A DNA stretch of 25,703 nucleotides from positions 1-25,703 of the IMG/VR virus record IMGVR_UViG_3300031576_000265. One strand, written 5' to 3'. The translations under genes and the position numbers were made by a program. The stretch comes from a virus. The notes beneath the pieces are model-generated. The model saw only the letters and a list, made by a program, of their open reading frames with translations, had not been told where the DNA came from and did not search any database. Each line of letters opens with the position of its first letter. The stretch's first letter is position 1. Positions 20,229 to 25,703 of the stretch are shown in pieces.

Positions 20229-20783
20229 ATGCCTAGGTCAGCACAAGACATCGTGAACGCCCTCTTGAGGCATCGGGGCAACGTCCTTGCGGCGGCCGAA
20301 GACCTGGCGATGAGCCGGAAGAATCTCTATCAACGCATCGGGGGCCTAGGCCTGGACCTACCCGCCATCCGGCGGACAGACCTGCGGCGAGTGGTACCTC
20401 TCACACGTTACATGGGTGACATGAGACCTCCAGGGATCGGGACGGGACATGAAACGACTGTGGCCGAAACTGCGAGTGGACCGTTGCTCTCGGGATCTGT
20501 CGGGCGCAATCTCCGGCCCATGCAGGCAGCCGCAAAGGATGAGGACGCCCAAGGGCCAATCCGGGCGATGGCGCCGCGTCAGCGAACGATCAGGCTTCGC
20601 CCCGACTTCCAAGACCGGCTGCGCGAGGCCAAACTCGAATTCCTCATCCGCTTCCGGATCGAGACAGACGAGAATCTGATCCTCGATCAGTTCTTCGAGG
20701 AGTGCTTCACGCCATGGCTCCAGGCCAAGCTCCAGCCCCAGGCCGAGCCCAAGCGCAAGCCGAAGGCCAAGGAGGAGAAGTGA
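20229..20783 (+). CDS. Fis-type HTH regulator
   Basis: The 184-residue product begins with a Fis/HTH_8-like module: 'IVNALLRHRGNVLAAAEDLAMSRKNLYQRIGGLGLDL' (residues about 8-44), with the classic N-(V/I)-xx-AAE-x-L-x-(I/M)-S-R-x-x-LY-x-R signature. A long polar linker follows. A second folded part (residues about 118-172, 'QRTIRLRPDFQDRLREAKLEFLIRFRIETDENLILDQFFEEC') has a strand-helix-helix look compatible with an RHH-like or dimerisation domain. The end is Lys/Pro/Ala-rich. It heads the early operon and diverges from an RHH gene. No ribosome site is visible, consistent with leaderless translation. Activator or repressor status is unknown. Confidence 0.72.
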   Translation: MPRSAQDIVNALLRHRGNVLAAAEDLAMSRKNLYQRIGGLGLDLPAIRRTDLRRVVPLTRYMGDMRPPGIGTGHETTVAETASGPLLSGSVGRNLRPMQAAAKDEDAQGPIRAMAPRQRTIRLRPDFQDRLREAKLEFLIRFRIETDENLILDQFFEECFTPWLQAKLQPQAEPKRKPKAKEEK

Positions 20784-20807: not shown

Positions 20808-20921
20808 ATGAGTCGTCGTGGTCGCGGTCGTGGTCGGGGTCGTGGTCGGGGTCGGGGTCGGGGTCGTAAAAGAGTCTTGGGCGCTTACCGGCGCGAAGCG
20901 CCGTGCGCCTCGGGCGAATAG
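20808..20921 (+). CDS. Candidate RG-repeat micropeptide
   Basis: ATG 20808 opens a 37-codon frame: MSRR, then alternating Gly-Arg for some sixteen residues, then KRVLGAYRREAPCASGE. RG-rich peptides bind nucleic acids. The DNA beneath is a six-base tandem repeat, and no clear ribosome site precedes it, so the frame could be a by-product of repeat expansion. It starts 24 bases after the HTH gene stop, in the same frame. Confidence 0.35.
   Translation: MSRRGRGRGRGRGRGRGRGRKRVLGAYRREAPCASGE
20814..20866 (+). repeat. Tandem six-base repeat GGTCGN
   Basis: About eight consecutive copies of GGTCGG/GGTCGT/GGTCGC run through this stretch. On the plus strand they encode Gly-Arg in the frame starting at 20808. 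Such repeats expand and contract by slippage, so copy number may vary among relatives. Confidence 0.85.
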
Positions 20922-23235: not shown

Positions 23236-24092
23236 TCCGCGTCGACGCCGAGAACGTCCGATGCCTTTACTGTCGGCGGACCCTTGAGTGGGAGGGGACG
23301 CCGGACGCGGCCGCGTTCCGCGCCGGCGAGGCCTTGAGGATGAAGTGTCGTCGGTGCGGCAAGCGGTTCCTGGCGAACCTCGTCCCGGATCCGCAGCGCC
23401 CCGGGGAGTTCCTGCGGTCCATGGTCGAGGTCGGGGGGGCGGCAGCCATGAGCGATCACCCGAAGCTCGCGCGAGAGACCGTCCTGCCGGCGGCCGAGCG
23501 CCTGGCCGGAATCCTGTCGAAGGCGTGCCACCGCATCGAGATCGCGGGCTCGCTCCGCCGCGGCCGCGCGGCCGTCGGCGACATCGAGCTGGTGGCCATC
23601 CCGAAGATCGAGCCGCTCGCCAAGCCAGGCTCGCTCTACCCGGAACCCTACAACCTCCTCTGGGAGGGGTTGGACGGCTACGCCAAGCAGGCCGGCTGGC
23701 GGTACCTGAACCACGGCCAGAAGTACCGGAAGTTCCTGATGCCTTACGACCTCCGGCGGCCCGCGGACCAGGTCCAGGTCGACCTCTTCACCTGCGAGCC
23801 TGAGAACTGGGGGAACATCTTCCTGATCCGGACCGGGCCCGCTGAGTTCTCGCAGGCCGTCGTCACGCGCCTGAGGGAGTGCGCGCGGCCGTCGTCGGGC
23901 GGTTTCGTCCGGCTGGCGCCCTCGGTCCATCCCGAGATCCCCTACGGCGGGGAGTTCCGAGAGTGGACCGAGGCCGAGAAGGCCCGGATGGAGAAGGTCC
24001 CGACGCCGCGAGAGGAGGACGTCTTCGAGATCGCCGGCATGGAGTACGTCCCGCCCGATGAGCGGGACGAGTGGAGAGAGGGCCGCCTATGA
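23232..24092 (+). CDS. Zinc finger plus polymerase-beta-type nucleotidyltransferase
   Basis: From ATG 23232 (ATGA overlap) the product is 286 residues. Residues 1-45 form a Com-like zinc finger (C11/C14, C39/C42; VRCLYCRRTL and MKCRRCGKRF). Residues about 75-240 are a nucleotidyltransferase of the DNA polymerase beta/X superfamily, with G106-S107 in IAGSLRRG, D117-x-E119 in GDIEL, and third acid D184 in VQVDLF. All three catalytic acids are present, so nucleotide transfer is likely. The substrate (DNA end, RNA or protein) cannot be read. Internal ATG 23448 could start the enzyme alone. A run of seven Gs (23433-23439) lies at the joint, so the fusion should be confirmed. Confidence 0.78.
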   Translation: MIRVDAENVRCLYCRRTLEWEGTPDAAAFRAGEALRMKCRRCGKRFLANLVPDPQRPGEFLRSMVEVGGAAAMSDHPKLARETVLPAAERLAGILSKACHRIEIAGSLRRGRAAVGDIELVAIPKIEPLAKPGSLYPEPYNLLWEGLDGYAKQAGWRYLNHGQKYRKFLMPYDLRRPADQVQVDLFTCEPENWGNIFLIRTGPAEFSQAVVTRLRECARPSSGGFVRLAPSVHPEIPYGGEFREWTEAEKARMEKVPTPREEDVFEIAGMEYVPPDERDEWREGRL

Positions 24093-24628
24093 CCACCGAA
24101 GTCCGCTTCGAGGCGCGCCAGGTCCTGCCGCCGATCGAGCACCTGATCGCGCAGCTCGGGCCGGCCTGCCACCGGATCGAGCTCGCCGGCGCCGTGCGCC
24201 GCGGGAACCGGGAGCTCGACCTGGTCGACCTCCTCGCAATCCCGCGGATCGACCCGAAGCGGAACCTCCTCTGGGAGCTCCTCGACGGCTGGAAGGAGCT
24301 GCTCCACGGCCGCAGCGGGGAGTTCTCACGGGTCTTCTACTGGCCCGTGTCGCCCGACCAGTCGATCCAGGTGAACCTCTACACCGCCCGCGCGGACACC
24401 TGGGGGAACGCCCTCGTCCACCGGACGGGTCCGGAGGACTTCTGGCTCTACCTGGTCGGGAGGCTTCGCGAGGAGGGCTTCATCTCCAGGAACAACGAGA
24501 TCATCCGCCTGGCCGACAACACCCTCGCCCCATGCCGCGAGGAGGAGGACTTCTTCGCCCTCGCGCGGGCCCACGTGCGGCCGCCCCAGTCGCGGGCCGG
24601 CTTCGGGTCTGAAAGGAGCTCCTGGTGA
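24089..24628 (+). CDS. Degenerate paralog of the nucleotidyltransferase
   Basis: The 179-residue product from ATG 24089 aligns without gaps to its neighbour over the active-site region (CHRIELAGAVRRG against CHRIEIAGSLRRG; later WGNALVHRTGPEDFW against WGNIFLIRTGPAEFS). At the catalytic positions, D117 and E119 become L45 and D47, G106-S107 becomes G34-A35, and D184 becomes N96. D44 might partly substitute for the first acid, but the family geometry is lost. It probably arose by tandem duplication and works as a non-catalytic partner or has a changed activity. The zinc finger is absent. The start overlaps the upstream stop by four bases. Confidence 0.78.
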   Translation: MTTEVRFEARQVLPPIEHLIAQLGPACHRIELAGAVRRGNRELDLVDLLAIPRIDPKRNLLWELLDGWKELLHGRSGEFSRVFYWPVSPDQSIQVNLYTARADTWGNALVHRTGPEDFWLYLVGRLREEGFISRNNEIIRLADNTLAPCREEEDFFALARAHVRPPQSRAGFGSERSSW

Positions 24629-24681: not shown

Positions 24682-25703
24682 GTGAAGGAGAGGGCCTATG
24701 AGGGCTGGTTCCCGTTCCCGCGCGGCGGCGCCCAGGAGTGGCTCTGGGACGACGCCGAGATCCTCCGGGCCTGGGCGACGCTCCACCGGCGCGCCCAGAC
24801 GCGGCCAGGGTCGCACCTCCATCGCGGAGCCGTCCTCGACCTCGAGGTGGGCCAGCTGGCCACGACCCTCCAGGCCTTCTCGAAGACCCTGGGCTGGAGC
24901 CGGGACCGCGTCCGCCACTTCTTCGCCCTCCTCCAGAAGCGGAAGGAGCTCGTGGTGAGACCCAAGACGTTCGACCCGAATTCCGACACTTGGATCGACA
25001 CCAGAACCGACAGGGGAACTCTTCTCTTAACCCTTGTCAACCATCCCTTTAGGGAAAAGGCTCAAGGGAAATCGACACCAGAATCGACACTAGAATCGAC
25101 ACCAGAACGAGAAAATCGACACCAGAACGACACCAGATCGACAGCAGAACCGACACCGAAATCGACACCTGAATCGACACCTAAATCGACACCTGATTCA
25201 GCGCCATTTTCCCATGGTGTTGAGCCGTCGTCGGTCGTTGCGACCGACACCAAATCAGACACTGAATCCGACACCAGAATCGACACCCCTCCGCGCGCGC
25301 ACCCCCCCCAAAAATCGACACGTTTAAACAACAACAACAATACCCCTACCAGAGAACCCTCCGGCGAAAGGGGGGTCCGGGGGGAAATCGAGCGGGTTCT
25401 CGGAGCGGTCCATCCGGACAGAGGCAGGGAGGGGTCCGGAGGGCGAGAGCCCCGTCCTGCGGATCCGCGCCATCCCCTGTTCGGCCTGCCGCACCCCAGA
25501 CGGGCCCTGGACCTCCTGGCCACGATTGGGATGGGACGGGCCGTCTCCCGGTCGATCTCGGTCGAGATCTCGATCGGGCGGATCCTCGACGTCGTCGTGG
25601 CCGCCCGAACGCGGGACAAGCCGGGGGGATGGGCCCGGACTGCGTTCGAGGAGGGCTTCGAGGTGCCTCGAGCCAACGGGGAGGACCTGAAGGCCCTGGT
25701 GCG
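24682..25703 (+). CDS. Replication initiator/replisome-organiser-like protein (partial)
   Basis: The frame is open from GTG 24682 to the right edge, 340 codons without a stop. Residues about 10-120 match the winged-helix domain of phage replication organisers: 'EWLWDDAEILRAWATLHRRA', a 'GAVLDLEVGQLATTLQAFSKTLGWSRDRVRHFFALLQKRKEL' wing-helix core and the closing 'TLLLTLVNHPF'. Residues 125-225 are a Ser/Thr/Pro/Asp linker encoded by a DNA repeat. Residues about 270-325 (RALDLLATIGMGRAVSRSIS, then IGRILDVVVAARTRDKPGGW) match the C-terminal helical module of such proteins, thought to contact the helicase or its loader. The layout parallels lambda O. Confidence 0.75.
   Translation, partial: MKERAYEGWFPFPRGGAQEWLWDDAEILRAWATLHRRAQTRPGSHLHRGAVLDLEVGQLATTLQAFSKTLGWSRDRVRHFFALLQKRKELVVRPKTFDPNSDTWIDTRTDRGTLLLTLVNHPFREKAQGKSTPESTLESTPERENRHQNDTRSTAEPTPKSTPESTPKSTPDSAPFSHGVEPSSVVATDTKSDTESDTRIDTPPRAHPPQKSTRLNNNNNTPTREPSGERGVRGEIERVLGAVHPDRGREGSGGREPRPADPRHPLFGLPHPRRALDLLATIGMGRAVSRSISVEISIGRILDVVVAARTRDKPGGWARTAFEEGFEVPRANGEDLKALV
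24983..25323 (+). repeat. Iteron-like array, candidate phage replication origin
   Basis: The octamer TCGACACC occurs exactly at 24995, 25072, 25096, 25116, 25162, 25174, 25186 and 25280. One- or two-base variants lie at 24983, 25007, 25084, 25127, 25138, 25150, 25244, 25268 and 25315. Most neighbours in 25072-25194 are 11-12 bp apart. A 17-bp copy (AATCGACACCAGAACGA) occurs at 25094 and 25114. The array lies between the DNA-binding and C-terminal parts of the initiator gene. Translation crosses the repeat in all three registers, so the DNA rather than the peptide is conserved. Confidence 0.72.
25031..25068. repeat. Nested inverted repeat inside the array
   Basis: CCCTTG (25031-25036) and CAAGGG (25063-25068) are inverted halves, and inside them TCCCT/AGGGA (25044-25055) can pair. 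This occupies the gap between the first two-three repeat units and the main block. It may be an origin hairpin; no function is shown. Confidence 0.5.
25310..25345. other. AT-rich patch, candidate unwinding element
   Basis: Directly after the last iteron-like unit the sequence turns A/T-rich (AAAAATCG..., GTTTAAAC palindrome at 25322-25329, repeated CAA to 25340) within otherwise GC-rich DNA. An easily melted patch beside iterons is the standard arrangement of an initiator-opened origin. Confidence 0.5.

What the first reader, a model, noticed from the sequence alone, without database searches (positions are those of the whole stretch)
24983..25323. Candidate replication origin: iterons inside the initiator gene, read in all three frames
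About 17 TCGACACC-type units, many on a 12-bp pitch, lie between the winged-helix and C-terminal parts of an initiator-like gene. They are decoded as Ile-Asp-Thr (24994), Ser-Thr-Pro (25072) and Arg-His-Gln (25117). Changing the reading frame while keeping the base repeat argues for selection on DNA, as expected for iterons. Lambda gene O is the established precedent for an origin within its initiator gene; the repeat here is not one I recognise.
Basis: partly seen in the sequence, partly recalled or inferred. Interest (0 to 1): 0.85.

Follow-up and report, generated by a model that had tools for sequence, protein, structure and literature searches.

The report
Phage replication origin inside initiator gene
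In an unclassified virus contig that encodes tailed-phage genes, the gene for the likely replication-starting protein carries 18 copies of a short DNA repeat that is kept while the reading frame shifts, which is how many phages (lambda is the textbook case) keep their replication origin inside that gene; it is a good new example with unusually many copies rather than a new kind of thing.

Summary
Eighteen same-strand units (consensus AAATCGACACCAG, core CGACAC) lie at 24980-25324, mostly on a 12-bp pitch, and fall in all three codon phases (9, 8 and 1 units). More copies are present than synonymous codon choice allows (12 observed; at most 9 and 6 in 200 trials each), and this is the window's AT-richest stretch. 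The gene's N-terminus matches phage DnaD-like helicase loaders ("replisome organizers", phrog_2514, E 6.8e-9) and is modelled as a winged helix. The strongest evidence is comparative. Among 61 non-redundant relatives, the coding DNA just after the winged helix, and only there, shows an 11-bp periodicity. Of 55 examined singly, 52 have at least three 11/12-bp-pitch units, 49 in two or more frames, with 48 different seed 8-mers: the architecture is kept while its letters change. Lambda O's mapped iterons sit at the same distance from the gene start and also span three frames. Best explanation: an initiator-embedded iteron origin of the lambda O / SPP1 gene 38 / pSK41 rep type. Binding, origin activity and melting element are untested; the contig cuts off the C-terminus. 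New member of a known kind, distinguished by copy number and by three units overlapping wing-coding DNA.

The parts
24682..25703 (+). Initiator gene (DnaD-like helicase loader / replisome organizer), GTG start, runs off the contig end (340 codons present)
   Evidence: phrog_2514 E 6.8e-9 over aa 7-95, phrog_186 E 4e-4; tblastn to Vibrio phage F89 and ctekg1 DnaD-like loaders, E 2e-6 and 9e-6; window is a whole virus record, so the gene is cut
24703..25062 (+). Winged-helix DNA-binding domain (aa 8-127), helix 74-86 as recognition helix, wing strands 105-110 and 113-118
   Evidence: AlphaFold2 model, mean pLDDT 77; Foldseek to phage replisome organizers, E down to 4e-8
24980..25016 (+). Iteron cluster 1: three units on 12-bp pitch, codon phase 2, coding for the first wing strand (IDTRTD)
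25017..25068 (+). Repeat-free gap, coding for the second wing strand and following residues (TLLLTLVNHPFREKAQG); gap probably imposed by the protein fold (inference)
25069..25105 (+). Iteron cluster 2: three units on 12-bp pitch, codon phase 1 (Ser-Thr-Pro/Leu)
25113..25195 (+). Iteron cluster 3: seven units, spacings 11,11,12,12,12,12, passing through codon phases 0, 2 and 1
25215..25248 (.). Inverted iteron-like copy TGGTGTTGA (25215-25223) and an 8-bp-arm hairpin GTCGGTCG/CGACCGAC (25230-25248) in the gap between clusters 3 and 4
   Evidence: folds better than shuffles, z -2.3; role unknown
25241..25289 (+). Iteron cluster 4: four units on 12-bp pitch, codon phase 2
25312..25324 (+). Last isolated iteron unit AAATCGACACGTT, codon phase 1
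25320..25345 (.). Short A-rich tract coding for poly-Asn (RLNNNNNT) directly after the last iteron; candidate start of the melting element (inference)
   Evidence: local GC 48% against 64% for the window; relatives have an A-rich, 9-bp in-frame array in the same relative place

Best explanation
This is the phage's replication origin, or its main initiator-binding part, lying inside the coding sequence of its own initiator. The winged-helix N-terminus binds the 18 direct repeats, about one unit per helical turn, and builds a nucleoprotein array. The adjacent A-rich DNA is melted, and the C-terminal part brings in the replicative helicase or its loader. The DNA repeats occupy stretches where the protein tolerates them: the wing strand and the long linker. 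The repeats and initiator homology are shown here; site binding, melting and helicase loading are inferred from lambda O, SPP1 gp38 and pSK41 Rep.
For: 18 same-strand units across three codon phases; repeat exceeds synonymous-codon nulls. Core letters CGACA are nearly invariant in interior units (1/45 mismatches) against 20/63 at the other positions, p 6e-5. Initiator homology by profile, tblastn and fold. AT-richest 380 bp of the window. In relatives, 11-bp periodicity in nt 310-430 of the gene (z 8.6 over 61), none in the winged-helix or C-terminal zones. 52 of 55 relatives have at least 3 units, 49 in two or more frames, 35 in three; 55% have at least 4 units in three frames against 14% for synonymous permutation and 0% in the other zones. 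Lambda O iterons at gene nt 348-432, in three frames. Published: the origin lies within the initiator gene in lambdoid phages (PMC7466680), SPP1 gene 38 (PMC6316719) and pSK41 rep, whose N-terminal domain binds the boxes and whose central part is a dispensable linker (PMC5703833).
Against: No binding or origin data. The C-terminal 106 residues have no match among phages and the gene is truncated, so helicase-loading function is not shown. No close relative of this phage was found, so conservation of this particular repeat could not be followed. There is no long AT tract like lambda's next to the array. Cumulative GC skew shows no interpretable turning point in this fragment. A test for iteron/recognition-helix co-variation was not specific.
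Confidence: 0.85

Rival explanations
1. Neutral minisatellite: a 12-bp unit expanded by replication slippage in a disordered linker, with indels shifting the frame, and no function as binding sites.
For: Tandem 12-bp head-to-tail copies; linkers tolerate such expansions; the linker is low-complexity.
Against: Variation is concentrated outside a nearly invariant core. Repeats resume after gaps of 58 and 65 bp and through several frame changes. Relatives have 11-bp, non-codon-multiple arrays in the same place with unrelated letters, which slippage under a reading-frame constraint does not predict.
Confidence: 0.08
2. Initiator-bound repeats with a different main role, such as autoregulation, incompatibility or copy control, or partition, with the origin proper elsewhere.
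For: Iteron arrays can also control copy number in plasmids; the high copy number (18) would suit titration. SPP1 has a second origin, oriR, away from gene 38 (PMC6316719).
Against: In the closest studied cases (lambda O, SPP1 oriL, pSK41) the in-gene repeats are the origin (PMC7466680, PMC6316719, PMC5703833). The A-rich stretch follows the array as in those origins.
Confidence: 0.06
3. Selection acts on the linker peptide and the DNA repeat is a by-product.
For: Long stretches do read as repeated Ser-Thr-Pro-Glu/Lys.
Against: The same DNA unit is read as three different peptides, and the repeat count exceeds synonymous nulls.
Confidence: 0.01

Closest known systems
Phage lambda ori in gene O (and Stx-phage relatives)
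   Same: Direct-repeat iterons in the middle of the initiator gene, bound by the initiator; iterons at O-gene nt 348-432 in three frames, against nt 299-643 here; A-rich stretch after the array (PMC7466680).
   Different: Lambda has 4 iterons of 18 bp spaced 20-24 bp (6 in Stx phages); here 18 units of about 12 bp. Protein similarity to O only marginal by sequence (phrog_678, E 0.13).
SPP1 oriL in gene 38
   Same: Direct repeats plus AT-rich element inside the origin-binding-protein gene; replisome organizer (PMC6316719).
   Different: SPP1 record was not in the collection, so repeats could not be compared.
DnaD-like helicase loader genes of phages (phrog_2514; e.g. Vibrio phage F89, vB_LmoS_C996, Lactobacillus phiAT3)
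   Same: Same N-terminal domain, and an 11/12-bp-pitch repeat array just after the winged helix.
   Different: They have mostly 3-7 units (up to 10), mostly 11-bp pitch, with different letters; none surveyed has this unit.
RepA_N plasmid initiators (pSK41 rep)
   Same: Origin centrally within rep; N-terminal domain binds it; origin-coded central part is a dispensable linker (PMC5703833).
   Different: Four Rep boxes in a plasmid; homology to this gene not tested.

Membership tests
Phage DnaD-like helicase loader / replisome organizer (phrog_2514) | N-terminal domain homologous to the family | tested here: met
   phrog_2514 E 6.8e-9; tblastn E 2e-6 and 9e-6; 18-29% identity to 39 relatives over the domain
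Phage DnaD-like helicase loader / replisome organizer (phrog_2514) | Winged-helix fold | tested here: met
   AlphaFold2 model pLDDT 77; Foldseek to phage replisome organizers E 4e-8 to 1e-4; PDB hits are generic winged helices at E 0.03 or weaker
Phage DnaD-like helicase loader / replisome organizer (phrog_2514) | C-terminal helicase/loader-interaction domain | tested here: inconclusive
   No phage match for the C-terminal 106 aa; gene cut by the contig end
Phage DnaD-like helicase loader / replisome organizer (phrog_2514) | Neighbouring DnaC-like loader or DnaB-like helicase gene | not testable with these tools
   Contig ends inside the gene
Initiator-embedded iteron origin (lambda O / SPP1 oriL / pSK41 type) | Same-strand direct repeats in the middle of the initiator gene | tested here: met
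   18 units
Initiator-embedded iteron origin (lambda O / SPP1 oriL / pSK41 type) | Repeat maintained at DNA level beyond coding need | tested here: met
   Synonymous nulls; three codon phases; family-wide non-codon periodicity
Initiator-embedded iteron origin (lambda O / SPP1 oriL / pSK41 type) | Adjacent AT-rich melting element | tested here: inconclusive
   Region is the AT-richest 380 bp of the window (52% GC against 64%), but only a short A-rich tract follows the array
Initiator-embedded iteron origin (lambda O / SPP1 oriL / pSK41 type) | Initiator binds the repeats | not testable with these tools
   Needs EMSA or footprinting
Initiator-embedded iteron origin (lambda O / SPP1 oriL / pSK41 type) | Region works as a replication origin | not testable with these tools
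   GC skew of a partial genome is uninformative

The most novel reading that the evidence does not exclude
The array is an expanded variant in which 18 one-turn units form a long initiator filament that also governs copy number, and in which the DNA-binding domain's own wing strand is encoded by its binding sites, so that binding-site evolution and DNA-binding-domain evolution are physically coupled.
Probability: 0.12. Interest if true: 0.5.

Novelty: new member of a known kind. Interest (0 to 1): 0.36.

Why it matters
It locates a probable replication origin in a virus contig with no close relatives in the collections searched. The survey around it shows that a repeat array on an 11/12-bp pitch directly after the winged helix is a near-universal mark of this phage initiator family (52 of 55). 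Candidate origins, and candidate binding sites for each initiator, could therefore be read straight from the gene sequence across many phages, giving matched protein/site pairs for studying how initiator specificity evolves.

Tried and rejected
Exact three-unit pattern TCGACACC on a 12-bp pitch in IMG/VR: 4 contigs. The one with a dense array codes a repeated Pro-Val-Asp-Thr linker in an unrelated protein next to a glycoside-hydrolase-like gene; the others have no array. Close relatives of the initiator, portal and adjacent gene: none; no DNA match among phages; no plasmid match. Co-variation of iteron sequence with the recognition helix looked positive at first, but a control helix of the same domain gave the same partial correlation, so I read it as shared ancestry and do not use it. 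Hairpin in the 25017-25068 gap: no better than shuffles. Cumulative GC skew: not informative. SPP1 was not in the collection.

Full report
Observation. The window is a complete IMG/VR virus record of 25,703 bases with phage terminase, portal and major head protein genes. The gene 24682-25703 (GTG start) runs off its end. Tandem Repeats Finder independently reports 10.8 copies of a 12-bp unit at 25070-25193 and 3.6 copies at 25245-25287. Codon phases of the core are 2 (8 units), 1 (9) and 0 (1).

Significance. In the coding stretch 24958-25330 a 10-mer recurs 12 times with at most one mismatch. With protein and codon composition both held fixed, 200 synonymous permutations give a mean of 5.4 and a maximum of 9; redrawing codons from the phage's usage gives at most 6; base shuffles at most 3. 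In the interior units of each array the core CGACA has 1 mismatch in 45 positions and the rest of the unit 20 in 63 (Fisher p 6e-5). The stretch is also the AT-richest 380 bp of the window (52% GC against a 64% mean).

The gene. Residues 7-95 match phrog_2514, DnaD-like helicase loader, at E 6.8e-9; tblastn finds DnaD-like loaders of Vibrio phage F89 and ctekg1. An AlphaFold2 model of residues 1-134, on an alignment with 39 IMG/VR relatives, has pLDDT 77. It shows a winged helix: helices 63-70 and 74-86, wing strands 105-110 and 113-118. Foldseek's best viral matches include several named replisome organizers. PDB matches are generic winged helices with weak E-values. The C-terminal 106 residues have no phage match.

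The first three units (24980-25016) encode the first wing strand (IDTRTD), so they lie inside the DNA-binding domain. The repeat-free gap 25017-25068 encodes the second wing strand and what follows (TLLLTLVNHPF...), which aligns with the conserved 'TxITIxNYxxYQ' of relatives. The simplest reading, an inference, is that units occupy the positions the protein tolerates.

Comparative test. I collected eight annotated phage relatives and 80 IMG/VR loci. Among 61 non-redundant relatives, autocorrelation of the coding DNA at lag 11 is +0.102 above expectation (z 8.6) in gene nt 310-430, with an echo at 22 (z 5.8). At lag 11 it is absent from the winged-helix zone (-0.005) and the C-terminal zone (-0.010). 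Eleven is not a multiple of three, so the signal is not made by repeated peptides. Of 55 relatives examined one by one, 52 have a chain of at least three units on 11/12- or 22-24-bp spacing, 49 in two or more frames and 35 in all three. The six of the 61 left out were three whose match lacks the N-terminal domain (L014, L049, L053), a near-duplicate (L038), and L032 and L033, which I dropped without a special reason and which had weak arrays. Chains of at least four units in all three frames occur in 55%, against 14% after synonymous permutation, which itself inherits the repeats' codon make-up, and 0% in the other two zones. The seed 8-mers are nearly all different (48 among 55). The array therefore persists while its letters change, as expected if each initiator has its own sites. 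By the uniform count the window has the most copies (13 in 250 bp; next 10 in L064).

Positive control. In lambda the annotated iterons lie at O-gene nt 348, 368, 392 and 415 (starts), in codon phases 0, 2, 2 and 1: the same distance from the gene start and the same frame-crossing. Published work places origins within the initiator gene for lambdoid phages (PMC7466680), for SPP1 oriL in gene 38 with gp38 binding direct repeats next to an AT-rich element (PMC6316719), and for plasmid pSK41, where the origin-coded central part of Rep is a dispensable linker (PMC5703833). From memory, not checked here: the review of phage replication modules by Weigel and Seitz (2006) treats in-gene origins as common.

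Mechanism. Shown: repeats, their DNA-level maintenance, initiator homology and predicted fold, and a family-wide array in the same place. Inferred: the winged helix binds the units, the nucleoprotein array melts the A-rich DNA after it, and the C-terminus recruits helicase or loader. The A-rich tract here is short, so the melting element is the weakest part of the anatomy.

What did not work. Co-variation of iteron sequence with the recognition helix failed its control. GC skew is uninformative on a fragment. No close relatives of this phage were found with any gene tried.

Verdict. It is a new member of a known kind. It stands out by copy number and by the overlap of three units with the wing-coding DNA; the wider interest lies in the family-wide signature.

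Noticed in passing
23421-24092 and 24071-24628: Two adjacent, overlapping genes encode paralogous proteins (35% identity) with a DNA polymerase beta-type thumb (PF14791; one at and one just below the cut-off), directly upstream of the initiator. They look like a tandem duplication of an X-family-polymerase-like nucleotidyltransferase.
   Followed up: partly
20815-20867: A second, unrelated 12-bp array (GTCGTGGTCGGG, 4.4 copies) in the space after a Fis-type helix-turn-helix gene (20229-20783).
   Followed up: no
L007, L009, L013, L015, L036, L037, L060, L073 and others, about nt 380-450 of the initiator gene: Directly after the 11-bp iterons many relatives have an A-rich, 9-bp, in-frame array (AATAAAGAT-like, coding Asn/Lys/Asp); nt 380-480 is more AT-rich than the gene as a whole (69% against 63%, p 3e-9). 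Possibly the melting element; the window has only a short poly-Asn counterpart.
   Followed up: partly
25215-25248: In the gap between iteron clusters 3 and 4: an inverted iteron-like copy and a perfect 8-bp-arm hairpin with a 3-base loop.
   Followed up: partly
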